Shown here one piece after another: positions 2,987-29,666 of a stretch of DNA of 64,000 nucleotides. Made by a program: the position numbers and the translations under genes. The notes below the pieces were generated by a model that did not search any database, was not told where the DNA came from, and worked only from the letters and a program-made list of their open reading frames with translations. The DNA comes from Anaerocolumna aminovalerica. GTDB taxonomy: Bacteria > Bacillota > Clostridia > Lachnospirales > Lachnospiraceae. The DNA lies in contig NZ_FOWD01000005.1 in the NCBI RefSeq assembly GCF_900115365.1, forward strand, positions 66,048 through 130,047, written 5' to 3'. Numbering within the stretch: the stretch's first letter is position 1; the number at the start of each line of letters is the position of its first letter.

Positions 2987-5683
2987 CTACGCCTTCTCAA
3001 TTTTTATTGCACATACCTTATACTCCGGTATGCGGGCATATTCATCCAGGGCAGCATTGGTTAACCAGTTTGCATTGCCATCTTGAAAATGGAATGGCAT
3101 CCAGCTTTCTCCCTGTGATACTTTTACACCAACTCTTGCTGTGGATTCTATTACGCCCCTGCGGGAGGATACTTTTACCCTGTCTCCGTTGACAATACCC
3201 AGTTTTAAGGCATCCTTCTCATTCATTTCAATGAAAGACCTTCCTTCTATTTCATTTAGTCCGGGAGTTCTGCCGGTCATGGCTCTTGCATTATAGTGTG
3301 CTAAAATACGTCCTGTCATCATAATAATTGGATATTCTTCATCTGGTAATTCTGCAGAAGGCCTGTATTCTGCCGGGAAGAACCAGCCCAAACCTCTTGT
3401 GAATTTGCCCACATGCATAATAGGAGTCCCGTTATGACTTTTTCCGGTGCAAGGCCACTGTAAACTTTCTCCTGCATCCAGTCTTTCATAACTGATACCT
3501 GCAAAACTTGGTGTTACAGAAGCAATTTCCTCCATGATTTCGGAAGCTGTTAAATAAGGCTGAGAATATCCCATTCGGTTCATTAAATCCATAAATATAT
3601 CCGCATCTGAACGCATCTCACCTTCTATGGTTACTGCTTTGCGAACCCTTTGTACTCTTCTTTCCGTATTGGTAAAGGTTCCTTCTTTTTCTGCGTAGCT
3701 GACACCGGGAAGTACCACGTCTGCATACCTGGCAGTTTCCGTCATAAATAATTCCTGTACTACTAAGAAGTCAAGACTTTCCAACGCTTTTATTACATGA
3801 TGGGTATCAGGATCGGAAACAACCGGGTCTTCACCAAAAATATAAAGTCCCTTGATTCTTCCTTCTGTTGCTGCCGGAAATACATCCGTTGCATGGGTTC
3901 CTTGCTTATGATTTAAAGGAACTCCCCAGGCTTTTTCGAATTTTTCTATTACTTCCGGATTCCTGACCTTTTGATATCCCGGAAAATCTCCCGGCATGGC
4001 ACCCATATCACAGGCACCCTGTACGTTGTTCTGTCCACGTAAGGGATTAACTCCACAGCCCGGTTTTCCCAGTTTACCTACCGCCATAGCTAAGTTGGAG
4101 ATGGACATAACTCCTTCGGTTCCTGTGGAGTGTTCCGTTACTCCCAAACAATATATAATTGGTGCTTTCTTTGCTGCAGCGTACATTCTTGCTGCTTCTC
4201 TTAATTGATCCGGATGGATATGGCAGATTTCTGCCACCTTCTCCGGTGTGTAATCCTTTACGATTTCAGCAAGAACCTCATAACCTTCCGTACGTTCTTT
4301 AATGAATTCCTTGTCTTCTAATCCCTCCGACAAAATTACATTTAACATACCATTTGCAAAAGCCACATTGGTTCCCGGCTTTAATTTCAGATGTATATCT
4401 GCTTGTTTGGACAATCCAATATCCCGGGGATCTACTACGATTAGTCTGGCACCCTCACCAACTGCCTTACGAATCTGCATACCTACAACTGGATGAGCTT
4501 CCTCCGGATTGGAGCCAATAAGTAAGATGCAATCCACATCATGATGTGTAATATCATAAATAGGGTTAGTCATAGCACCGGAGCCTAAGGTCATGGCAAG
4601 ACCGGCTACTGACGCAGAATGGCATACACGGGCACAATTATCCACGTTATTGGTACCAAAGCAGGTTCTTACCATCTTTTGCATCATGTAAATATCTTCA
4701 TTAGGGGAACGTGAACATGCAAAGCCTGCTAAAGAATCCGGGCCGTATTCTTTCTTTAATTCCAGGAATTTGGAAGCAACCAAGTCCATGGCTTCTTCCC
4801 AGGTTGCCTTTTCAAATTCACCGGTCTTTTTATTCTTTATTAACGGATATTTTAATCTCTCTTTGGAGTGTATGAAATCAAAGGAGCCGGAACGTCCTTT
4901 CACACATAACCGTCCTTTGTTGGAGGGGCCTTCGGCACTTACCACATCAACAATTTTATTGCCTCTTACCACAAGATATAATTGACATCCTGTACCGCAG
5001 TGAGGACAGGTTGTTAAAACCTTTCTTACTTCCCAAGGCTGATATTTTTTTCTTCGACCTTCTGTTAATGCTCCGGTTGGACAGGCCTGTGCACAATTAC
5101 CGCAGGATTCACAGATAGTATTCTTCCAGTCCTCACCAAAGGGTGCATCAATAACAGTAAATATTCCATTTTTTCCAGAGGTTATGGCTTTTCTTCCTAC
5201 TGTTTTGGAACAGGTATTAATACACCTTTGACAATGGATGCAAAGACTTGGATCGTAGGATAAAAAGGGATGGGAATGAAGGATTTCCTTTTTGATTTTA
5301 CTTCTGCTGCCTTCGTAAGAAGATTTTTCTATTCCATATTCTTTACAGTAACTTTGCAGACCACAATCTCCATTCTTAGGACAGGAAAAACAATTTGTAC
5401 TATGGTTGGATAAAATCAAATCCAAGGTCATTTTTCTTGACTTTATTACTTTTTCACTTCTTGAACGGACTACCATACCTTCTTTCACAGGGGTATTACA
5501 GGAAGTAACTAATTGTTCCATTCCCTCTACTTCTACTACACAAAGTCTACAGGCGCCTATAGTGCTGACTTCTTTTAGATAACATAAAGTAGGTATCTTA
5601 ATTCCTCCAGAAACAGCAGATTCCAAAAGAGTGCTTCCTTCCTTTGCCTGAATATTTTTACCGTCTATTATTATATTCACCAT
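2987..5683 (-). CDS. fdhA: Molybdopterin formate dehydrogenase catalytic subunit (Cys form, NuoG-like N-terminus)
   Basis: Catalytic subunit oxidising formate (or reducing CO2) at a molybdenum or tungsten bis-MGD centre. Domains in order: 2Fe-2S ferredoxin (Cys in TLCYL and GACRLCVVE), NuoG-type His/Cys cluster (HSTNCFSCPKNGDC), two 4Fe-4S motifs (CIHCQRC and CESCGNC), the molybdopterin Fe4S4 motif CPHCGTGC, then the large MGD domains and a C-terminal dinucleotide-binding domain. The active-site motif reads RVCHSASVAG with Cys at residue 354, so this is the cysteine rather than selenocysteine form. The start was set at 5683 because a GGAGG-type site precedes it and the upstream stop lies one base away; a longer frame would overlap the preceding gene. 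Forms an operon with the diaphorase-like gene upstream. No fdhD is seen nearby. Formate is the best substrate guess. Confidence 0.85.
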   Translation of the reverse strand: MVNIIIDGKNIQAKEGSTLLESAVSGGIKIPTLCYLKEVSTIGACRLCVVEVEGMEQLVTSCNTPVKEGMVVRSRSEKVIKSRKMTLDLILSNHSTNCFSCPKNGDCGLQSYCKEYGIEKSSYEGSRSKIKKEILHSHPFLSYDPSLCIHCQRCINTCSKTVGRKAITSGKNGIFTVIDAPFGEDWKNTICESCGNCAQACPTGALTEGRRKKYQPWEVRKVLTTCPHCGTGCQLYLVVRGNKIVDVVSAEGPSNKGRLCVKGRSGSFDFIHSKERLKYPLIKNKKTGEFEKATWEEAMDLVASKFLELKKEYGPDSLAGFACSRSPNEDIYMMQKMVRTCFGTNNVDNCARVCHSASVAGLAMTLGSGAMTNPIYDITHHDVDCILLIGSNPEEAHPVVGMQIRKAVGEGARLIVVDPRDIGLSKQADIHLKLKPGTNVAFANGMLNVILSEGLEDKEFIKERTEGYEVLAEIVKDYTPEKVAEICHIHPDQLREAARMYAAAKKAPIIYCLGVTEHSTGTEGVMSISNLAMAVGKLGKPGCGVNPLRGQNNVQGACDMGAMPGDFPGYQKVRNPEVIEKFEKAWGVPLNHKQGTHATDVFPAATEGRIKGLYIFGEDPVVSDPDTHHVIKALESLDFLVVQELFMTETARYADVVLPGVSYAEKEGTFTNTERRVQRVRKAVTIEGEMRSDADIFMDLMNRMGYSQPYLTASEIMEEIASVTPSFAGISYERLDAGESLQWPCTGKSHNGTPIMHVGKFTRGLGWFFPAEYRPSAELPDEEYPIIMMTGRILAHYNARAMTGRTPGLNEIEGRSFIEMNEKDALKLGIVNGDRVKVSSRRGVIESTARVGVKVSQGESWMPFHFQDGNANWLTNAALDEYARIPEYKVCAIKIEKA

Positions 5684-5684
5684 A

Positions 5685-7529
5685 TCAGTCCCTGCCTCCT
5701 TCCAATACACCGCATCCATAATGGTCACATCGCAAACATCTGGATACTTCCTGCATAGCTTCTTCATAAGACATTTCATTCTCTATATGAAGAAAATCTT
5801 GCTTACGGATACTTGGCTTTCTTTCCGTTAGATTTACACGTCCCGTTGGAATACGGTTATTGGGATTTGCATCCGGTATCTTAATTCCAGCATTTACTTT
5901 GTGGTGATAACCCAAGTATTCGTCAATGCTAAAGGCTGCAACTTTACCGGCTGCAACTGCCTTTATAACAGTAGAAGGCCCTGTAACGCAGTCTCCTCCT
6001 GAGAATACTCCTTCTAATTCTTTAACAGCACATTCCGATGTAGTGACAAAACAATTACCATCTGTCGGCATTCCAAATTCTTCAAAAGGGCCCTTTATAA
6101 TATCCTGACCAACTGCTATTAAAATAATATTACAAGGAATTCGTTCCGGTTCTTTCCTTGCATCTACGGGACGGGGACGTCCTTCACTGTCATATGCACC
6201 AATCCTTTGAGGCTGTGTCCAAAGGGCCGTACAATTTCCGCTTTTATCCGTTTCTATGTTAAGAGGTGCCTGTAAGGTCATTAATTCAACTCCTTCCATA
6301 ACAGCCCCTTCTATTTCACTGGCTAGAGCAGTCATATCCTCCTGCCGCCTTCGATATACTATGGTAACTTCCTCTGCTTTACACCGAAGGGCGCTTCTGG
6401 CACAGTCCATTGCCACATTACCCCCTCCAATTACCACTACCTTTTTGTTGGAGTAATCCGGATAATTTCCGTAACCAATTTCCCGAAGCATATCCACAGC
6501 TGATGTTACATTACCACAATTGGCTCCTTCTATTCTTAAGCCCTTTCCCCTTTGAGCCCCGATAGCAACGTATAGGGCATGGTATTCTTTATGGATATTT
6601 TCTATAGGAATGTCTTTTCCTACACTGCTATTATAGATTACATCAATATTACCGGTAGAAAGTATGGCTTTTATATCTTCTTCCAAACGGTCTTTGGGAA
6701 ATCTATAATTTGGTATTCCATATCTTAGCATTCCTCCAAGCTTATCATTTTCTTCATATATCACCACTTTATGCCCCATAAGTGATAGGAAGTAGGCTGC
6801 GGTCAATCCGCTTGGCCCCCCTCCCACAACAGCGATCTTTTTACCTGTTGTTACATTACTTTGGGGCAAAGGTACGGTATCTGCCGACACCTGGTCTACG
6901 GCAAATTTCTTTAGACCCCTTATATTTAGAGGACTATCAATCAGGCTGCGTCTGCAGCGCTCTTCGCAGGGATGTTCACAAATCATGGCGCAGGCAGTAG
7001 GGAAAGGATTATCTTTACGAATTAAATTGATAGCTCCTGCATAATCCTTTTCACCAATCAAAGAAATGTAACCTGGTATATCCACATGTGCCGGACATAG
7101 GGCTACACAAGGCAGCTTCTGCTCTGTTCCTTTTTGACAGCTATTATTCTCAATATGACTTATGTACTCGTCATAAAAGACTTCCATGCCCTCCAACATA
7201 TCCCCTGCAGTTTCGTAACCAATGGCACAATCTGAATTATCCCGTATATATTCAGCTAAGTGCTTTATCTCCTCTAAAGTATCTTTTGTTGCTTCTCCGT
7301 CTAAAACAAGTTGTAATAATTCTTCCAACTGGGGTAATCCATCACGGCAGGGAACACATTTACCGCAGGTCTGGTTTTTTGATGTATGTAGTAAAGACAT
7401 TTGTACAATCAAAGGGCAAACTCCCATTGGATATGCATCTAACTTGCGTCTAAACTTTTTTAAAACTTCATCGATTTGCTTTTTGGAATTACTTTGTTCC
7501 AATGTGCATTTAGCCAATTTTGCACCCAT
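5685..7529 (-). CDS. NuoF C-terminal Fe-S / GltD-like FAD-NAD(P) oxidoreductase fusion
   Basis: Electron-transfer partner of the formate dehydrogenase. Residues ~1-125 resemble only the C-terminal 4Fe-4S part of NuoF (CGKCVPCRDG and a later Cys in NSDCAIG); the FMN/NADH-binding core of NuoF is missing. From ~135 on it resembles the small subunit of glutamate synthase: a Cys-rich Fer4 domain (CVALCPAHVDIPGY, CAMICEHPCEERCRR), an FAD-binding loop (GGGPSGLTAAYF), an NAD(P)-binding loop (VVIGGGNVAMDCARSA) and the closing GGD motif (FSGGDCVTGPSTVIKA). A Cys pair (CLRCDHYGC) is near the end. It therefore probably carries electrons between NAD(P)H and the iron-sulfur chain of FdhA. RBS AGGAGG precedes the ATG. 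The two proteins together may form a soluble NAD(P)-linked complex. Confidence 0.82.
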   Translation of the reverse strand: MGAKLAKCTLEQSNSKKQIDEVLKKFRRKLDAYPMGVCPLIVQMSLLHTSKNQTCGKCVPCRDGLPQLEELLQLVLDGEATKDTLEEIKHLAEYIRDNSDCAIGYETAGDMLEGMEVFYDEYISHIENNSCQKGTEQKLPCVALCPAHVDIPGYISLIGEKDYAGAINLIRKDNPFPTACAMICEHPCEERCRRSLIDSPLNIRGLKKFAVDQVSADTVPLPQSNVTTGKKIAVVGGGPSGLTAAYFLSLMGHKVVIYEENDKLGGMLRYGIPNYRFPKDRLEEDIKAILSTGNIDVIYNSSVGKDIPIENIHKEYHALYVAIGAQRGKGLRIEGANCGNVTSAVDMLREIGYGNYPDYSNKKVVVIGGGNVAMDCARSALRCKAEEVTIVYRRRQEDMTALASEIEGAVMEGVELMTLQAPLNIETDKSGNCTALWTQPQRIGAYDSEGRPRPVDARKEPERIPCNIILIAVGQDIIKGPFEEFGMPTDGNCFVTTSECAVKELEGVFSGGDCVTGPSTVIKAVAAGKVAAFSIDEYLGYHHKVNAGIKIPDANPNNRIPTGRVNLTERKPSIRKQDFLHIENEMSYEEAMQEVSRCLRCDHYGCGVLEGGRD

Positions 7530-7568
7530 TCACACTTTCCTCCTACAATTACAGATACATTTGTTTTT

Positions 7569-7597
7569 ATTATACAAACAGGATTAAGAGATTGCAA
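7569..7597 (-). promoter_or_regulatory. Sigma-A-type promoter of the formate dehydrogenase operon
   Basis: On the minus strand, -35 TTGCAA (7592-7597) and -10 TATAAT (7569-7574) are separated by 17 bases and lie 40 bases before the first gene of the operon. Good match to the vegetative consensus. Confidence 0.6.
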
Positions 7598-7826
7598 TGA
7601 ATGATATTTTTTTGACAAATTCGGTGGCAAAAAAGACAACTTTATTGTGAATAATGAATATATTTAAATTTTCAATAATTATAGCTCATTTAATTAACCC
7701 AGCTTACATTACGTATTTTTGTTAAAATTATGCTAATACTATAATTGTTTTAAAAATTCTGAAAAATGCCCAATCTTAACAGCTACCCTGCCTTAAGGAT
7801 ATAACCCGGAATGGAGTGAATCAATT

Positions 7827-9363
7827 TTGAATAAAATAAAATTTATAGCCAGTAAAGTACTTATCCCTTTTATCGTGATTTTAGCGGAAATATTCCTATT
7901 TATTATAATGGTTATTAAATACCACCAATACTTTGTTTTATATTATATAGTAAAGTTTATTATTAGCTTTATTGCTATGCTTTGGATTATTAATAAGCGT
8001 ATGAATCCCACATTTGTAGTAACCTGGTTATTCACTATTTTTCTTTTTCCTGTTTTTGGAGTATTGGTTTATATCCTTTACGGTGGAAAACTAACCGGTA
8101 AAAAAAATGCAGGCAGAACTAAATTCCATATATTCCAAAATACAATCAGATTTCTCCCTTGGAAGCGATGCCATTCTTTCGGAACTGAAAGAGATTGATA
8201 TTCATGCCTACCGCCAGGCAAATTATATTAAGGGCAAGTCTCTTTGTCCCATATATAAAAATAGTTCCTGCACCTATTTTCCATCTGGAGAAGCTTCTTA
8301 TAATGATATTATGAATGCTTTAAAATCAGCAAAAGAGTTTATTTTTTTAGAATTTTTTATTATAAAAGAAGGTGTATTCTGGGACGGTGTACTTGATATT
8401 CTTACTAAAAAGGTGAAAGAGGGTGTGGATGTAAGAATTATTTATGATGAAGTAGGCTCTCTATTTACTCTGCCGGCTCATTATGATAAAAAATTAATAT
8501 CCTTAGGAATAAAATGTCATGTTTTTAGACCCTATAGTTGGATTTTTTCAACGGTAAGTACCAATCTGGACCACCGTAAAATATTATTAGTTGACGGTAA
8601 AGCCGCTTTTACCGGAGGATTTAACCTGTCTGATGAATATATTAATGTTATTAATAAACATGGTTATTGGAAGGATTCCGTAATTCGTGTAAAAGGTGAT
8701 GCCGTACAGAATTTTACTGCTATGTTCTTATCTACTTGGGATTATTTAGATGGCTCAACCGAAGATACTTCCCCATTCCATAAAGTTATTACTCTTTCTG
8801 AAGAAGATAATCCTTCCGGATTCGTTCAGCCCTATAACGATACTCCGCTGGATTATGAAGGAGTGGGTGAAACCGTATATCTTAATTTAATTAATAAAGC
8901 CACAGATTATGTCTATATTACAGCTCCTTATCTTATAATAGACAGTGAAATGGTAACAGCCCTGTGTAATGCCGCCAAAAGCGGTGTAGATGTTCGAATC
9001 ATTACTCCCTATATTCCGGATAAAAAGATAGTTTTTATGATGTCTTGTTCCTTCTATCCTGTGTTAATGGAATCCGGCGTCAAAATTTATGAATTTACAC
9101 CTGGATTTATTCATTCCAAAAATATTATAGTGGATGACCTTTATGGTGTAGTGGGTTCTATTAATTTAGATTACCGCAGTTTATATTTTCATTTTGAATG
9201 CGGCGTATGGATGTATAAGTCAGAATGCATTATGGATATGAAGAAAGACTTTCTCAGTACGATTGAAGAAAGCAAACTTATCTATTATGAAAAAAGTAAA
9301 TATAAGAATTGTTTTAAGCGCTTTGCAAGTTCTATTTTAAGAATATTTGCACCGCTTTTTTAA
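7827..9363 (+). pseudogene. cls: Cardiolipin synthase (PLD family), split by a frameshift
   Basis: Membrane phospholipase-D-type synthase condensing phosphatidylglycerol into cardiolipin. The first frame (TTG start 7827, GGAG 10 bases upstream) encodes the N-terminal transmembrane hairpin domain. The second frame (from about 8107 to 9363) carries both catalytic motifs, DHRKILLVDGKAAFTGG and HSKNIIVDDLYGVVGS. The frames meet at a run of eight A (8100-8107). Seven A would join them cleanly as GGKLTGKKMQAEL, so one extra A explains the break. It may be a true mutation, a slippery or phase-variable tract, or a sequence error. A short overlap lets the second frame start at its own ATG, but without the membrane anchor and without a clear RBS. 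The gene has its own terminator just after the stop. Confidence 0.85.
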
Positions 9364-20318: not shown

Positions 20319-21632
20319 TCACATATTTCCTTCTTCTTTTTTCTTCCAGATAAAAGGCTCATATAATTCCTTCATTCTTTTCACCACAGTATTCTGATTG
20401 CTATCCTGTATTAGAATATCATACTGCCCCGGAATAGTACCAAAAGTCACCATCTTCTCCAATCCGGTTAAGACTTTTAGTTCAGCAAGCATATTTTCTT
20501 TAGCAGCATCTTCATGATATATGTTTAAATAAGTGTAACCCGGATTGTCTTTGGACGAGCTTTGCACTATTCGAATATGTTCTGCTATAGGCAGATCCTT
20601 AATTCGCTGATGGATTTTTGTAATATGTTCCTGTTTACAGATACACATTATATGAAAGCATTCCCCATCACTTCCTGTACTTCCCTTTATAAAATTACGA
20701 TAGGGTGAAGTTCTTAGTTTATTATAAACCTTTTCTTCTGCCTGCTGATAGAATTCTTCGTAATATATCATTAAAGTTTCCTGTAGTAAGACTGTAGTAA
20801 AACAGCAGATTTTTTCCTCTCTTAAAAGATCTTGTATGGATTTTACTACTTCTTTATCCAATATCTTTTTTCTTAGAAATTCTTTCTTTTCCACATCGTA
20901 TAAAACTGCTCCATTAAAAGCAATTACCGGCAATTTTAAAGGTACCTCCTTTACAAAGTCCATTAAAGAGGCAATGGTTCTTTCTGTGGCTATGGTAAAA
21001 TTAGCTCCCCGCTCAATCATACGGTTTAATTCAACCCTGCTGTATGGTACTAATTCTCCCTTATCATTTAGCAAAGTATCATCCAATCCGCTGACAAACA
21101 AAATATTGTTATTGTTTCTCCGTGGTAATGAAATCCGATTAACTATAATTGACACTCCAACTCCAATAAGGGTATCCAGCACACGATTTAATACAAACAA
21201 GTAGGGATTGCTGTCACTTAAATGGTTTACCGTAATACTTAAAAATACCACACCAGAAAAGAATGATACCTCATGTTTCTTTAAAAGAACTGCCGTATAT
21301 ATAACAGGAATAACGGAAATGGAAATAAACAAATATTTCCACATTATAGGTATATCTTTTAATATATAAGTATTCATAACTAAAACAATGCAGCCCCAAA
21401 AGGCTCCGTTAAAGGTACCAAATGTCCGGGATTTGGCATTAGTTTTACTATTCTCTATATATGTTTCCATACAAAATATTGCTGCTATAGCAGAATAAAA
21501 TGGAATACCTTTCTCACCTCTGAGTATGTATATAATAAGGCAGATAAACACGGCCATGGCAGTCTTTATCATTCGGAGGCCAACCGGCATTATTCTAAAC
21601 TTTTTCTCATTTTCTTTACTTTGGGAAAACAT
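20319..21632 (-). CDS. FUSC/ArAE-type membrane domain fused to a degenerate HAD domain
   Basis: The N-terminal ~170 residues hold four to six hydrophobic helices typical of the aromatic acid exporter (ArAE_1/FUSC) half-domain. The C-terminal ~260 residues resemble a Cof-type (HAD-IIB) phosphatase. The HAD part has lost its key motifs: motif I reads SGLDDTLL (181-188) where DLDGTLL is expected, so the nucleophile Asp is Gly182. The final GDxxND motif reads FGTIPGQYD. The domain is therefore probably not a phosphatase and may instead bind a ligand to gate or assemble the membrane part. The RBS GGAG lies before the ATG. It is a stand-alone gene between GH94 and an AraC regulator. Confidence 0.75.
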   Translation of the reverse strand: MFSQSKENEKKFRIMPVGLRMIKTAMAVFICLIIYILRGEKGIPFYSAIAAIFCMETYIENSKTNAKSRTFGTFNGAFWGCIVLVMNTYILKDIPIMWKYLFISISVIPVIYTAVLLKKHEVSFFSGVVFLSITVNHLSDSNPYLFVLNRVLDTLIGVGVSIIVNRISLPRRNNNNILFVSGLDDTLLNDKGELVPYSRVELNRMIERGANFTIATERTIASLMDFVKEVPLKLPVIAFNGAVLYDVEKKEFLRKKILDKEVVKSIQDLLREEKICCFTTVLLQETLMIYYEEFYQQAEEKVYNKLRTSPYRNFIKGSTGSDGECFHIMCICKQEHITKIHQRIKDLPIAEHIRIVQSSSKDNPGYTYLNIYHEDAAKENMLAELKVLTGLEKMVTFGTIPGQYDILIQDSNQNTVVKRMKELYEPFIWKKKEEGNM

Positions 21633-23658: not shown

Positions 23659-23690
23659 CTTTTTTTATTACGTTGCTACATAATAACTTT

Positions 23691-23845
23691 ATGAGTATAT
23701 TAAAAGATATTTTTAATTATGAATAAATGTTATATATTTTTACATACCAGTAAGACTGTCATTGACAACGTTAATAAGATGATACCTTTTCTATTCCTGA
23801 GAAAGATTTTAAAATGCTTCGTTACTTTGGCATTTATGGGTTAAT
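23691..23845 (+). pseudogene. Deleted remnant of IS91-family transposase
   Basis: About 100 bases from 23691 match, with scattered differences, the 5' part of the transposase copy at 28387-28485 (shared blocks ATGAGTATATTAAAAGATAT and ACTGTCATTGACAACGTTAA). After an internal deletion the translation reads IPEKDFKMLRYFGIYG and stops. The same HIPE...RYYGIY segment lies near the end of the larger copy in a shifted frame. The remnant has the same orientation as that copy, so the two enclose the ParB/Dam/ATPase island as direct repeats. Confidence 0.7.
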
Positions 23846-23869
23846 TTTACATTTCTAATAATCTTATTA

Positions 23870-25570
23870 TCATTTCTGTAATTCTGCATTTTCATTGTCA
23901 TTTGCTACAAGTCCCATCATATAATCAAATCCTAACTTCTCTGCAATCAAATTATATACATCAATAAACTCTTGGACAAATTTATTAGCTTTATCTGGAT
24001 TTTTTAAAAACCAAAAATCGAATAATTTATTAATTCCTCCCAATGTTTCTTCCATGTATGCAAACCAACTCTTATATTCCTTCGCGTCATACTCAGCTTC
24101 TACCCAATCTCTGAAGCAAATCTCATAGGGCATTCTAACTTCTTGAATAGTTTGTTCAAATTCTGAATAAAATATAGGGTCCTTTAGCAACATAAACAAT
24201 CCCTTTTCAACATCTTCTGGAAGAAAAAGAATATTTTTTGCAGTATTTAAAATATAGTTTAATTTTGTTCTATCAGCTTTTTCACGAACATCATGATCTA
24301 GGATAATTACGCTATTTATAAATTCAGGAACATTTTTTTGATGTAATTGAACATAATTTGTCCAACCTAAATCAATATCTACAACATTAAAATAATTTTC
24401 AAAATTATAGTCTAAATGTTTTGAAAGTAAGTAGAATAATAATGACTTAGCTCTCTCATCTTCCAAGTAAACATTAACACTCTGTCTTACTGTTGATGGT
24501 TGCATATTAATACCATCTATTATAGTATTAAGGTCAGATGATGTTCTAATGTTTCTCCCTGTAATCATTCTTTTACTATCACCAACTTCTCCAACATAAT
24601 AAGATTCCAAATATATAAGTTCACATTCATAATTATATGAAATTATTGATGGGTCTATTCGTTGTTTTTGTAATTTTTTAACTTCATTACGTTGCAGGGA
24701 ATTAACTTCCTTCATAATCATTGGAGAATGTGTTGTAAATACTATTTGAATTTTTAATTCTTTTGACTTTTCGTAAAGGAATTTAACAAGTTTTTTCTGT
24801 GAGTACCCATATAAAGTTGCATCCAACTCATCAATCAACAATATTCCCCCTTTATATGCAGGGTATTTATCCTTCAATCTTTTAAATGATAATATAGCCA
24901 AAATAATTCTCCCGATATTACTTTCACCAGCTGAGTTAGTGAATACATCATGCGTAGTATCATTAACACCTACAAAACTTCTTTTAGCATCAGCCTTCTC
25001 CATTACTGCTGATGCATCTTTTGAATCTTGTATAGATAAAATTTCCTTATAATATCTTGTAAAAAATATATTTTCTTCATCTGTTAGTTTAATATCTACA
25101 GATTTTGTTTTTGCAGTCTCACCAATCGGAAATAATCTTCCTAAACTTAAATAGTAAACCGGTAATTGAACATAACCAGAGCCTTTAGCTCTACTTTTTG
25201 CGTTCCAAAATCTAATATCATCCGGGTTGCTCTTTGTTGGTCGCTTCATACTAGTAATCTTAATCTGATTGTCCTTATAATATCCGTTATTATAAAAATT
25301 CAACGTCCAAATATGTTCACCAAAACGATCAAAAGTCTTTGATAATTTAAATTTCTCTTTAAATTGTGATTTGAAATTATAACCATCAATAGTTGTACAT
25401 CCATACATTGGATGACCTGTAGATATTGTAAATGGCTGACCAAGCATTCCCAATACGGTTGTTTTTAATGTTGCATTACGTCCAGCTATTGCCGTTATAT
25501 TTTTCCCTATTTGTAACTTCAAATTCTCAATAGCTCTAAAGCGTTCTATATCAATATTTTCAATAATCAT
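23870..25570 (-). CDS. AAA ATPase with TOPRIM-like C-terminal domain (OLD-like)
   Basis: 566 residues, third gene of the island operon. The N-terminal SMC/ABC-like ATPase begins IENIDIERFRAIENLKLQIG. Its P-loop is unusual: GRNATLKTT (residues 30-38) with Leu where Gly precedes the Lys. The ABC-signature-like GESNIGRIIL, Walker B GGILLIDELDAT and the switch TTHSP follow. The C-terminal part (about 360-470) shows a TOPRIM-like pattern: an acidic residue in VYLEDERAKSLLFYLL and a DxD in VIILDHD. ATPase plus TOPRIM is the plan of OLD-family nucleases, including GajA, and of the PARIS ATPase/TOPRIM pair. Nuclease activity is inferred, not shown. It starts three bases after the methylase gene. Function within the set may be restriction or sensing. 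Confidence 0.75.
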   Translation of the reverse strand: MIIENIDIERFRAIENLKLQIGKNITAIAGRNATLKTTVLGMLGQPFTISTGHPMYGCTTIDGYNFKSQFKEKFKLSKTFDRFGEHIWTLNFYNNGYYKDNQIKITSMKRPTKSNPDDIRFWNAKSRAKGSGYVQLPVYYLSLGRLFPIGETAKTKSVDIKLTDEENIFFTRYYKEILSIQDSKDASAVMEKADAKRSFVGVNDTTHDVFTNSAGESNIGRIILAILSFKRLKDKYPAYKGGILLIDELDATLYGYSQKKLVKFLYEKSKELKIQIVFTTHSPMIMKEVNSLQRNEVKKLQKQRIDPSIISYNYECELIYLESYYVGEVGDSKRMITGRNIRTSSDLNTIIDGINMQPSTVRQSVNVYLEDERAKSLLFYLLSKHLDYNFENYFNVVDIDLGWTNYVQLHQKNVPEFINSVIILDHDVREKADRTKLNYILNTAKNILFLPEDVEKGLFMLLKDPIFYSEFEQTIQEVRMPYEICFRDWVEAEYDAKEYKSWFAYMEETLGGINKLFDFWFLKNPDKANKFVQEFIDVYNLIAEKLGFDYMMGLVANDNENAELQK

Positions 25571-25573
25571 TAA

Positions 25574-26452
25574 TTATACTCCTCTTAAGTTAATATTTAT
25601 TTTTTTATCTAACAATTCCTCATTGTTTGGACAAAAAGCAGTACTCTTAAATATTATTACTTCAGAACTTTTACGTGTATTAGCCACACTATAATTTAGA
25701 TCAAATCTTCTAATACAGTGGTTTTTGTATATTTCTATAATTTCTGGTGTATCATCGTATGTAATAATCCAGTTATTGTCAACATTATTCATTATCCTAT
25801 CAGCAATTATAGTGTGATCATGCTTTTTAAAAAAGTTTTTGTATAATTCGTGTCCTTTATTAAAATACGGAGGGTCAAAATAAACTAACACATCCTTTCC
25901 ATACCTCGGTAAAACGCAATCAATAAAACCCAATATTTCTTTATTATAAACTTTAATATGTTTTTTTCTACTCGCTATATCCTTAATTCTATTAACAAGA
26001 TTCTCTCTGTTATATCTTGCATCAATTAGGTAATTTCCATTTTGCTCCATTCCGCCTATTGGTCCTGCTTTTAATATTCCAGATCTATTTGTTCGATTTA
26101 GAAAAAATGTAGCAAATGCCAAATCTAAGGAATATTTATTATTTTTATTTGTATAAATCTCTTTTTGTCTATTCCACTCTTCTATCGATACAGGTGTTTC
26201 GATTATCCTATCAATCAAGTTATTAGATTCTATTAAAATTGCTCTCCAAACAGAATAGATTGCCTTATCATAATCATTTATTACAATATTATCTACATGT
26301 CCCTTCATTAATAGCGATAAAGCCACACCTGCTCCTCCAGCAAACGGTTCAATATATGTACCACCCTGTATATTTAATTTTTCTATCATGAATTCCATAA
26401 ATGGAGCAAGTTTTCCTTTTCCACCTGGATATCTTAATGGCGAATAGAGCAT
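25574..26452 (-). CDS. DNA adenine N6-methyltransferase, D12 class (Dam-like)
   Basis: 292 residues, SAM-dependent. Motifs in the D12 order: N-terminal RYPGGKGKLAPF (residues 7-18), SAM-binding EPFAGGAGVAL, ND acidic motif INDYDKAIYS, and catalytic DPPYF. These define the Dam/DpnM family; the recognition site cannot be read from sequence (GATC is only one option). GGAGGG precedes the start. It lies 19 bases after the ParB-like gene and 3 bases before the ATPase gene, so the three are surely co-transcribed. No classical restriction endonuclease gene is present; the ATPase/TOPRIM partner is the only nuclease candidate. Confidence 0.88.
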   Translation of the reverse strand: MLYSPLRYPGGKGKLAPFMEFMIEKLNIQGGTYIEPFAGGAGVALSLLMKGHVDNIVINDYDKAIYSVWRAILIESNNLIDRIIETPVSIEEWNRQKEIYTNKNNKYSLDLAFATFFLNRTNRSGILKAGPIGGMEQNGNYLIDARYNRENLVNRIKDIASRKKHIKVYNKEILGFIDCVLPRYGKDVLVYFDPPYFNKGHELYKNFFKKHDHTIIADRIMNNVDNNWIITYDDTPEIIEIYKNHCIRRFDLNYSVANTRKSSEVIIFKSTAFCPNNEELLDKKININLRGV

Positions 26453-26471
26453 CTACCATCCCTCCATTTCA

Positions 26472-27944
26472 TCAACTATTCAAGCAAATTTCTAATATTT
26501 TTCTCATATTATCAAAATAATAAATCAGAATATTTTTATTAGGTAAAACAGAATCATAATGAACATATCCATTAAAAATACTAAAAATCTTATCATTTTT
26601 TCTAATTTGATTCAAATTACTATGTTCTGCTAGACTAATGATCTTCTTTACTCTCATACTCTCCAGGGTTGCATTAAAAGTTCCTTCCAAATTATTTTCA
26701 ATAATTTTTCCGCTCTCATTTACATTATTTAAATAATACTTTAAACTTAATTCAACCAACACTCTCAATAAAACTGCCTGAGCATTAATTGAATAATTCA
26801 GATTTAGCCTTTTTAATTCATTTATAATATCATTAATCTTGATCATCTTACAAGAAACCATAAAATCATCAGGTATTAATACATTTCTATTCGAAGTATA
26901 TTTTTTATCATTTTTATTTTCTTTTTTATTTTTCTCTTTATTCCTTAAATCGTTTTTATTTTCTACATCCGACTCTTTACTGGTTATTTGAGTAGTTTCC
27001 TTCTTTCCCAAATCATTTGATGATAAAGTTTGTTTTTCTTCCTTGCGAGATTCAATCAAAATTTTATTTTCTGCTAAATAATTCATAAGTTCAGGAATAT
27101 CTTCATATGTACTTCTTGTTCCATTAAAATCAACGCAATAATCAGGAATAAAAGCAGCTTGTGCAACAATATATAATATTTTATCAAATATATCCTTATC
27201 TAAAGCAGTTTGAATATAAAAATTATCATCGTAGCTTAAATCTAAAATATCTCGTAATCTTGGATTCTTTTTATCTTGTGTTTTTGCGCTAAATAAACGA
27301 GTTAACCTAGATGTTTTAATATCTTGGAGATTTAAGTATTCTTCTTTTTGTTTCTGTGTCCAGTATTGTAGATTAAGAACATATTGAATTACCCTATATT
27401 CCTTTAAACCGCTACGTATTTTAGATTGAGAAACACCTGTAACTAGTGCTATTTCGTCAATTGTTCTTCCTGCATCAAATTCTAATGCAAAAAATTTATA
27501 TTTTGAAATTGTTGACCATTTTTTTATTCCATCAATATGCTTTGCTGCAAGTGAACTTTGAGCACTTATTCTACTAGGCATTACATCTACATTAATATTA
27601 GAAATATTATTGATTAAATTATCTGTAATTACTAATTTATTTATGGATGCCGGTCTTCGATTCTGTAACAATCGAGGATTCATTAATATTTTACATGCAC
27701 ATATTCTTCTATTACCTTCTAAAACAACATATTTCCCATTTTCTTTTACAGCTATAACTCTCTCTCCTGCATATAATCCGCCACTTTTACTAATATCCAT
27801 AGCTAATTGTTCTACTTCTTCATAGTCAATTAAATAATCTACAATACTTTGTTGTGATGGATTAGGTGGTATAATAAATCGAGGATTATTTTCATCCAGA
27901 ATCAAATCGTTAATATTTATATCTTTAGTGACATAATTAAGCAT
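26472..27944 (-). CDS. ParB-like N-domain protein with HTH and unknown C-terminal domain
   Basis: 490 residues, first gene of the island operon. The N-terminal ParB/sulfiredoxin-like domain (about 5-110) contains VVLEGNRR (residues 73-80), matching the GxRR box that binds or cleaves nucleotides in the superfamily. A helix-turn-helix (GRTIDEIALVTGVSQSKIR) covers 159-177. A Lys/Asn/Glu-rich linker spans about 299-345. The last ~140 residues form a helical domain I do not recognise. No ParA partner is near, so chromosome partition is unlikely. A role as DNA-binding specificity or signalling component for the methylase and ATPase encoded just downstream is inferred. Confidence 0.72.
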   Translation of the reverse strand: MLNYVTKDININDLILDENNPRFIIPPNPSQQSIVDYLIDYEEVEQLAMDISKSGGLYAGERVIAVKENGKYVVLEGNRRICACKILMNPRLLQNRRPASINKLVITDNLINNISNINVDVMPSRISAQSSLAAKHIDGIKKWSTISKYKFFALEFDAGRTIDEIALVTGVSQSKIRSGLKEYRVIQYVLNLQYWTQKQKEEYLNLQDIKTSRLTRLFSAKTQDKKNPRLRDILDLSYDDNFYIQTALDKDIFDKILYIVAQAAFIPDYCVDFNGTRSTYEDIPELMNYLAENKILIESRKEEKQTLSSNDLGKKETTQITSKESDVENKNDLRNKEKNKKENKNDKKYTSNRNVLIPDDFMVSCKMIKINDIINELKRLNLNYSINAQAVLLRVLVELSLKYYLNNVNESGKIIENNLEGTFNATLESMRVKKIISLAEHSNLNQIRKNDKIFSIFNGYVHYDSVLPNKNILIYYFDNMRKILEICLNS

Positions 27945-28170
27945 TCTTTCCCCCCACTATTGGCTACATAGCTTATTTATTCAATGTTAAAGTTAAAGTC
28001 CAAGTATTATTAAAAGTCCAAAGAAATATCCCTTCAGAAACTTATTAAAATCTTCATTAATCTTCAATCTCTATTCATTATATAGATATTAGATAAATAA
28101 ACAACTATTTACTGATACAATAAACCAAGATAATTTTACCATATTTATAAGCAAAATTGTATAAAAATTT

Positions 28171-28348
28171 TCATTCAATTTTAAACATCTGAGTCATTTC
28201 TTCAAATAACCCCTTTATATTTTTACCTTCATCCAGTAATTCAGCTGCTATAGATTTATTACTTACTAATCATTCAGCAATTTTGGTAATAATCTTGTTA
28301 TCATAAACTTCTCCAATCGATTTTCCGCGAATATCCTTACTCCCCTGA
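28171..28348 (-). pseudogene. Truncated gene fragment with in-frame stop
   Basis: On the minus strand an interrupted frame reads KDIRGKSIGEVYDNKIITK then IAE, a TGA at 28270-28272, and continues with LVSNKSIAAELLDEGKNIKG up to QMFKIE and a stop at 28171. It looks like the C-terminus of a protein whose front part is missing where the IS91-like element begins. The family is not recognised. The rest of the 27945-28170 gap is AT-rich with nothing clear. Confidence 0.45.
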
Positions 28349-28388
28349 CCCCTCATTCATGAGGGGAAGGGGTTTTCTTAATAGTCAT

Positions 28389-29512
28389 ATGAGTATATTA
28401 AAAGATATTTTTAAAAACCATTATGAAGAAATGTTATATATTTTACACCCTCGAAAAACTGTCATTGACAACGTTAACCGAATGCTTAACTTCGGTGACT
28501 CTTCTCATGGGGGTGCTTTTTGGGGGTGCCCCGATTGTGGCAAACTTAAATTTGTTTCTTATACTTGCAAAAGCCGTTTCTGTCCTTCCTGTGGTAACAT
28601 GTACAATCAGAAACGTTCTTTCCACATGTCTTGCAAGCTTATTTCTTGCGTCCAAGACATTGTGTTTTTACTATTCCTGAAGAACTTCGTAGCTTCTTTT
28701 TAAATGATCGCTCTCTACTTGGAGAACTTTTTTATTCCGTTCGTGATGCAATCCTCTACATGTTCTCAAAAATGAATAAAATCGAAAACTTTACTCCTGG
28801 TTTCGTCTGCGTTCTTCATTCTTTTGGACGCGATTTGAAATGGAATCCTCACATCCATGCTCTTATTTCAGAGGGCGGTGCTGGTAACATCACTCCTTGG
28901 CGTATTGTAAAACACTTTGATTATACCTTTCTTCGAAATTCCTTTCGGAAAGTCCTTCTTAATAGAATGTCAAAACATATCGGTCCCTCCTTTAAGAAAG
29001 TCAAAAATGAGATGTATACAAAGCATTCTAATGGTTTCTATGTACGAGTCAAGCCGAACTCCTGCACTCCAGATAAAACCATTAAATATATCACGCGCTA
29101 CATTTGCAGACCTGTCATTGCAGCTTCTCGTATTGATAAATACGATGGCTATTCCGTAACATTTCACTATAGCAGACATGAGGATGATGCTCTCGTAACA
29201 GAAACAGTTCCTTTACTTGTTTTTATAAAGCGATTAATTGTACATATCCCTGAAAACATTTCTAAAAGCTTCGATACTATGGAATTTATGCAAAACATCA
29301 CAAGCAAGAAAAAAATCTCAGAAAATGCCTTTCCTGTGAGAAACGTAGGCTCTTACGTTCCTTACTTGATTTGGAAACAATCCATTCTTCTAACGTTTGG
29401 ATATGACCCTCTTCGTTGTCCTAAGTGTGGCACTTCTATGTTGGTTCTAGAAGTGTAACATAAAAAAAATGCACTATTTGAACAATATCGAAAGTCTATA
29501 GGTTATGGATAA
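28389..29512 (+). pseudogene. IS91-family transposase, multiply frameshifted
   Basis: Rolling-circle (HUH) transposase. The N-terminal zinc-binding part (CPDCGK, SRFCPSCGN) is in one frame. After a frameshift near 28640-28655 the frame RPRHCVFTIPEELRSFF continues through the HUH motif WNPHIHALISEGG and the Tyr-bearing YITRYICRP. Around 29255 the expected segment ending RYYGIYAKHHKQEKN is in another frame, returning near IWKQSILLTFGYDPLRCPKC. A TAA at 29456 then interrupts LEV-HKKNALFEQYRKSIGYG, which ends at 29512. At least three lesions plus a stop mean it is inactive. The start used is ATG 28389, which aligns with the remnant at 23694. Confidence 0.8.
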
Positions 29513-29521
29513 ATCCACTTT

Positions 29522-29555
29522 CCATGCAAATTCATGGCGAAGTAGCACCCTTCGC
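29522..29555 (+). repeat. Hairpins at the 3' end of the IS91-like element
   Basis: Two adjacent small hairpins, CCATG-CAAATT-CATGG (29522-29537) and GCGAAG-TAGCAC-C-CTTCGC (29537-29555), lie just after the transposase frame. IS91-type elements carry a structured replication origin at this end, so these may mark it. The exact boundary was not determined. Confidence 0.35.
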
Positions 29556-29666
29556 TCTTTTGTTATGCCATTTTTTATTTCTACTCTATTATACACTATT
29601 TTTTCGATTTGAGGAATTTCCTAATAATTAAAAAAAGCTGTCAAACATTATGCTAGCCTGTTATCT

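What the first reader, a model, noticed from the sequence alone, without database searches (positions are those of the whole stretch)
23691..29560. ParB-like / Dam-like methylase / ATPase-TOPRIM operon as a candidate new defence or modification system
Three genes with gaps of 19 and 3 bases encode a ParB/sulfiredoxin-like protein with HTH, a D12 adenine methylase and an AAA ATPase with a TOPRIM-like end. Known: OLD-type ATPase-TOPRIM proteins act in anti-phage systems such as Gabija, and PARIS pairs an ATPase with a TOPRIM protein. A D12 methylase plus ParB-like partner is not a standard part of those. Seen: the set is alone, compact and bounded on both sides by decayed transposase copies. Inference: methylation marks self DNA or silences the complex, the ParB-like protein gives DNA or nucleotide recognition, and the ATPase is the effector.
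Basis: partly seen in the sequence, partly recalled or inferred. Interest (0 to 1): 0.85.

Follow-up and report, generated by a model that had tools for sequence, protein, structure and literature searches.

The report
PD-Lambda-5 phage defence with added nuclease
Three neighbouring genes in this bacterium are a published two-gene anti-phage system (PD-λ-5: a ParB-like protein plus a DNA adenine methylase) joined to a third, probably DNA-cutting ATPase that in about a hundred other prophage and genome loci almost always sits next to the same kind of methylase, which suggests one DNA mark protecting the cell from two different weapons.

Summary
In detail: three intact minus-strand genes, A (ParB-like, 490 aa), B (D12 adenine methylase, 292 aa) and C (OLD-like ABC ATPase, 566 aa), with gaps of 19 and 3 nt, lie between two decayed copies of one IS. 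The "new system" reading is only partly right. A and B match PADLOC's PD-Lambda-5_A and PD-Lambda-5_B (E 2e-52, 7e-114), a published system (Vassallo 2022). C is not part of that description. C homologues sit next to a B-type methylase in 92 of 97 loci, and four of the other five run off the contig; most lack A, and the C+B pair occurs in 85 of 5,426 E. coli genomes. I found no published system or PADLOC model for it. A+B+C occurs in eleven loci (Clostridia to Vibrio phages) in five gene orders, and the methylase tree forces several separate gains or losses. C's fold resembles OLD, GajA and retron Eco8 nucleases, with invariant E-D and DxD residues in a TOPRIM-like C-terminus; a sequence search restricted to that domain gave no match. 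Best reading: methylation-licensed, restriction-like defence in which one mark from B licenses two effectors, A and C. New variant of a known kind. No activity was tested.

The parts
26472..27944 (-). Gene A: ParB-like protein, 490 aa, PD-Lambda-5_A family
   Evidence: ORF; PADLOC PD-Lambda-5_A, E 2.2e-52; fold matches to KorB, Noc, ParB; phrog_9592, 226 bits
27537..27944 (-). A residues 1-136: ParB/Srx-like domain; EGNRR motif at residues 76-80 (27705-27719)
   Evidence: EGNRR invariant in 17/17 homologues; ParB-type fold
27375..27512 (-). A residues 145-190: HTH-like helical region
   Evidence: helices 145-157, 162-169, 173-190; weak Sigma70_r4, E 0.015
26475..26849 (-). A residues 366-490: all-helical C-terminal domain with invariant R394 and H462; possibly HEPN-like, unproven
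   Evidence: the same domain is fused to an HSP90-like ATPase in L182
25574..26452 (-). Gene B: D12-class adenine DNA methylase, 292 aa, PD-Lambda-5_B family; DPPY motif at 25865-25876
   Evidence: PF02086, E 7.6e-23; PD-Lambda-5_B, E 7.2e-114; motifs invariant
23870..25570 (-). Gene C: OLD-like ABC ATPase, 566 aa, phrog_3940 family
   Evidence: AAA_15, E 5.8e-13; phrog_3940, 328 bits over 3-545; fold: OLD, GajA, retron Eco8
25460..25483 (-). Walker A of C, residues 30-37 (GRNATLKT; G, N and K invariant)
24191..24481 (-). TOPRIM-like region of C, residues 364-460, with E370-D371 and D425-H-D427
   Evidence: not confirmed by a domain-only profile
28340..29600 (+). Decayed IS copy (frameshifted transposase), upstream boundary of the set
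   Evidence: other copies in the genome
23681..23775 (+). Remnant of the same IS 5' end in direct orientation, downstream boundary of the set
   Evidence: families D2-D4, 84-96% identical to 28379-28477; 85% over 49-138 of the IS

Best explanation
A chromosomal, horizontally acquired PD-λ-5 anti-phage system (A+B) joined to an OLD-type ATPase nuclease (C). B methylates adenines in a specific sequence, marking cell DNA as self. A, a ParB-like NTP-dependent DNA clamp with an HTH and a helical effector-like tail, and C, an ATPase that gates a TOPRIM-like nuclease, each act when they meet DNA without the mark, or when modification is disturbed. One mark thus licenses two independent effectors. Shown here: family identity of A and B, intact motifs in all three proteins, near-obligate pairing of C with B, recurrent A-B pairing, repeated A+B+C co-occurrence. 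Shown by others: A+B-type PD-λ-5 blocks phages in E. coli. Inferred: that C is a nuclease, that unmethylated DNA is the trigger, and how A and C divide the work.
For: PADLOC identity of A and B; phage restriction by PD-λ-5, cloned in an mrr-deleted host, which fits an active methylase (PMC9519451). C next to B in 92 of 97 loci, four of the other five cut by the contig end, 89 of 92 gaps at most 102 nt. A+B without C in 27 loci and A+B+C in the window plus ten. C fold like OLD, GajA, Eco8 with invariant E-D/DxD. A kept while methylase chemistry changes in P2-like phages. A-like N-terminus fused to an ABC ATPase in PDC-M38A. Methylase tree forces at least 6 changes of the A+B+C label. C+B in 85 of 5,426 E. 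coli genomes, in the one inspected between integrase genes.
Against: No activity was measured. The TOPRIM domain is not confirmed by sequence profile. Orphan B-type methylases exist. In two A+B+C genomes A is broken while B and C are intact, so A and C need not work together. No target motif or methylome is known.
Confidence: 0.6

Rival explanations
1. PARIS-like backup: A+B is the front-line restriction system and C is an abortive effector held inactive until a phage protein inhibits the methylase or the restriction step.
For: OLD-like ATPases paired with TOPRIM nucleases act this way in PARIS (PMC9122126); OLD-ABC modules are recruited as backup effectors by BREX (PMC12839542); C scores against AriA models in PADLOC for several homologues.
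Against: C occurs with only B in most loci (82 of 97), with no restriction partner for it to back up; AriA-model matches cover the ATPase part.
Confidence: 0.2
2. Prophage or plasmid maintenance: B protects element DNA against host restriction, and A and C are partition or regulatory ATP/NTP-binding proteins without a defence role.
For: ParB-like folds linked to methylases are enriched in prophages, where an anti-defence role was suggested (PMC12704722). Orphan B-type methylases exist in phages.
Against: PD-λ-5 itself gave phage protection (PMC9519451). No ParA-type gene lies beside A in the window. It does not explain an OLD-like ATPase beside the methylase in 92 of 97 loci.
Confidence: 0.1
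3. Two neighbouring but independent systems, PD-λ-5 (A+B) and C+B, which share one methylase only because one copy became redundant after insertion at the same site; no functional cooperation.
For: Modules occur separately far more often than together, and A+B+C arose several times in different orders.
Against: Only one B is kept in each A+B+C locus, so the shared mark must serve both if both are functional; co-location is enriched (4 of 9 C-bearing genomes in a sample of 398).
Confidence: 0.1

Closest known systems
PD-λ-5 (Vassallo et al. 2022, PMC9519451; PADLOC PD-Lambda-5_A/B)
   Same: A and B are full members by profile, adjacent and in the same order
   Different: an OLD-like ATPase gene follows; here in an IS-flanked chromosomal site instead of a prophage
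OLD-family nucleases: class 1 OLD, GajA of Gabija, retron Eco8 effector
   Same: ABC ATPase with TOPRIM-like C-terminus, by fold and by E-D/DxD residues
   Different: no GajB helicase and no reverse transcriptase; partner is an adenine methylase; about 13-15% identity
PARIS (AriA/AriB)
   Same: AriA-type ATPase relation in the ATPase part
   Different: no DUF4435/AriB gene; TOPRIM-like part is in the same protein; methylase present
PDC-M38 (PADLOC candidate system)
   Same: ParB-like N-terminus fused to an ABC ATPase, with a separate gene that looks TOPRIM-like
   Different: no methylase found nearby; only distantly similar to A and C
Type II restriction-modification
   Same: sequence-specific adenine methylase plus linked putative DNA-acting partner
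   Different: no classical restriction endonuclease; partners are a ParB-like protein and an OLD-like ATPase

Membership tests
PD-λ-5 | ParB-like component A matching PD-Lambda-5_A | tested here: met
   E 2.2e-52; 23 PD-Lambda-5_A models hit
PD-λ-5 | D12 methylase component B matching PD-Lambda-5_B | tested here: met
   E 7.2e-114 over residues 2-280
PD-λ-5 | A and B adjacent on one strand | tested here: met
   19 nt gap, both on minus strand
PD-λ-5 | system consists of A and B only | tested here: not met
   C follows 3 nt after B; the models PADLOC names PD-Lambda-5 that appeared were A and B only
PD-λ-5 | phage restriction | not testable with these tools
   known for the E. coli system (PMC9519451); not assayed here
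OLD-family ATPase-TOPRIM nuclease (C) | OLD-type ABC ATPase core | tested here: met
OLD-family ATPase-TOPRIM nuclease (C) | C-terminal TOPRIM domain with E and DxD | tested here: inconclusive
   residues invariant 53/53 and fold match, but domain-only profile negative
Gabija | GajA next to a UvrD-like helicase GajB | tested here: not met
   neighbours of C are B and a dapA-like gene; GajA models match only parts of C
PARIS | AriA ATPase with AriB/DUF4435 partner | tested here: not met
   no DUF4435 in A, B or C and no further gene in the set
Retron type I-B/Eco8 | reverse transcriptase and msr-msd beside the ATPase-TOPRIM gene | tested here: not met
   the three proteins have no RT domain; ncRNA was not searched
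Type II RM | cognate endonuclease cutting unmethylated sites | not testable with these tools
   methylase present; endonuclease activity of A or C unknown

The most novel reading that the evidence does not exclude
C+B is a widespread, undescribed methylation-licensed OLD-nuclease restriction system, and A+B+C loci are dual-effector systems in which one methylase licenses two unrelated effectors, assembled repeatedly by module exchange.
Probability: 0.4. Interest if true: 0.7.

Novelty: new variant of a known kind. Interest (0 to 1): 0.5.

Why it matters
PD-λ-5 has phage-restriction data, but I found no published mechanism in the library searched. Seeing that its methylase family also pairs almost obligately with an OLD-like ATPase, and that its ParB-like partner pairs with methylases of different chemistry, points to a testable rule: the methylase sets the self mark and the effectors are exchangeable. 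The C+B pair is present in 85 complete E. coli genomes, so it can be tested in laboratory E. coli directly.

Tried and rejected
Single-sequence search of viral contigs with C found nothing; an alignment was needed. The empty-site test failed: the flanking genes are not neighbours in congeners that have both. TOPRIM recognition by profile against the PDB, and against the PDC-M38B protein, failed. Pfam gives A no significant domain; its HEPN-like tail stays unproven (no R-x4-6-H motif seen around H462). Paper searches for an OLD-like ATPase plus adenine methylase system found none, but the ABC-ATPase classification paper that might describe it (doi 10.1093/nar/gkaa726) is not held, and DefenseFinder models could not be run. 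Considered and set aside: plasmid partition (no ParA beside A in the window), retron (none of the three proteins is an RT), Gabija, PARIS.

Full report
What is there. Three intact genes run on the minus strand: A (26472-27944, 490 aa), B (25574-26452, 292 aa), C (23870-25570, 566 aa), 19 and 3 nt apart. They lie between a decayed IS copy on the right (28340-29600, frameshifted transposase) and a remnant of the same IS end on the left (about 23681-23775, direct orientation). That IS has further copies in the genome. The three genes are 26-30% GC against 34% for the window. Outside are a dapA-like gene and a two-component pair (names read from the sequences), so no prophage is evident. B is the only D12 methylase of the genome, and A and C are single copies.

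Identity. PADLOC assigns A to PD-Lambda-5_A (E 2.2e-52) and B to PD-Lambda-5_B (E 7.2e-114); C hits only ATPase parts of many defence models. PD-λ-5 is a published E. coli system with broad phage protection, described by its authors as a compacted prophage version of an RM+Abi system and cloned in an mrr-deleted host (PMC9519451). A's model places a ParB/Srx fold at the N-terminus (Foldseek to KorB, Noc, ParB), with invariant EGNRR, an HTH-like part and an all-helical tail with invariant R394 and H462. B has the expected motifs, and its family profile matches DpnM and Dam structures weakly and 7m6b strongly. C is an ABC ATPase of OLD type; its model aligns over 600 or more columns with Thermus OLD, GajA and the retron Eco8 effector, with low overall TM-scores, and E370-D371 and D425-x-D427 are invariant in 53 homologues. 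The TOPRIM call rests on motifs and fold; a profile of that domain alone found nothing.

Association. C homologues were collected without using A or B as bait; a minority of the loci came in through the A scans. Across 97 C loci, 92 carry a B-type methylase, four of the other five reach a contig end, and one (L064) lacks it; 89 of 92 gaps are at most 102 nt. Most lack A. A homologues give 27 A+B loci without C. All three occur in the window and ten further loci: Acetivibrio mesophilus (same order, 65/75/73% identity), Vibrio phage ValB1MD-2 (C convergent), five viral contigs and three genomes of the same phylum. Orders include A-B-C, A-C-B, C-A-B and C convergent with A-B. In two of the genome cases A is broken, once by an IS and once by frameshift, while B and C are intact. 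In a 398-genome phylum sample C occurs in 9 genomes, A in about 7, and all three at one locus in 4. The combinations are not tied to one lineage of B: in a 73-row tree the A+B+C label needs at least 6 changes forced by well-supported branches; the window and Acetivibrio B are sisters of a B+C methylase from the window's own genus, whereas L160/L161 are sisters of an A+B methylase. The C+B pair is present in 85 of 5,426 complete E. coli genomes at 80-90% identity, in the one inspected between two annotated integrase genes in a prophage-like region.

What points to the mechanism. Short A homologues of P2-like phages sit with an unknown gene and a methylase that can be C5 type (Wphi Mth and many relatives), D12 type or SPPY type (the C5 and SPPY calls rest on motifs except for the annotated Mth). 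Keeping A while swapping methylase chemistry fits a self mark rather than a private interaction with one enzyme. The PADLOC candidate PDC-M38A fuses an A-like N-terminus to an ABC ATPase next to a gene whose N-terminus (VVVVACEGQHD) reads like a TOPRIM motif, a natural link between A-type and C-type modules. A's tail also occurs fused to an HSP90-like ATPase. Anantharaman et al. 2013 list ParB-HEPN fusions and a HEPN family in operons with a ParB nuclease and DNA methylase (PMC3710099).

Verdict. The set is best read as a PD-λ-5 defence system to which an OLD-type effector has been joined, with one adenine mark licensing two effectors. The identity of A+B, the intact motifs and the associations are shown; nuclease activity of C, the trigger and the division of labour are inferred. 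Against it: no activity was measured, orphan B-type methylases exist, and A is sometimes lost beside C. The finding is not a wholly new system, since two of its three genes are a published one. What seems unreported, within the libraries I could search, is the near-obligate C+B pair and its repeated union with PD-λ-5.

Noticed in passing
L005, L017, L112, L115, L117-L131, L135, L138-L140 (C5); L016, L105-L109, L111, L113, L114, L116 (D12); L021 (SPPY): Short A homologues (about 360-390 aa), mostly in P2-like phages, sit with a methylase gene that can be C5 type, D12 type or SPPY type; where checked (L005, L016, L021) an unknown gene of about 340-370 aa without Pfam or PADLOC hits lies between. 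A is kept while methylase chemistry changes.
   Followed up: partly
L142:5950-9028 (also L143, L146, L149): PDC-M38A: ParB-like N-terminus fused to an ABC ATPase (746 aa), followed by PDC-M38B (289 aa) whose start VVVVACEGQHD looks like a TOPRIM motif.
   Followed up: partly
L182:2965-4884: The C-terminal domain of A is fused to an HSP90-like (HATPase_c_3) ATPase, a different defence-like architecture.
   Followed up: no
L160 (G167) and L161 (G277): A+B+C loci in which A is interrupted by an IS in one and frameshifted in the other while B and C remain intact, so A may be the dispensable member.
   Followed up: partly
L187 (E. coli GN4143, 1148581-1163306): C+B pair between two annotated integrase genes; the pair is in 85 of 5,426 complete E. 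coli genomes, convenient for bench tests.
   Followed up: partly
L189 (Vibrio cyclitrophicus phage, 3986-8428): B-type methylase without A or C, convergent with three genes, one annotated as a HerA helicase and one as a P-loop NTPase: possibly another exchangeable partner set.
   Followed up: no
window 20319-21632, minus strand: 437-aa ORF that, read by eye, joins an N-terminal multi-helix membrane domain to a C-terminal HAD/Cof-like phosphatase domain; an unusual fusion, not analysed.
   Followed up: no
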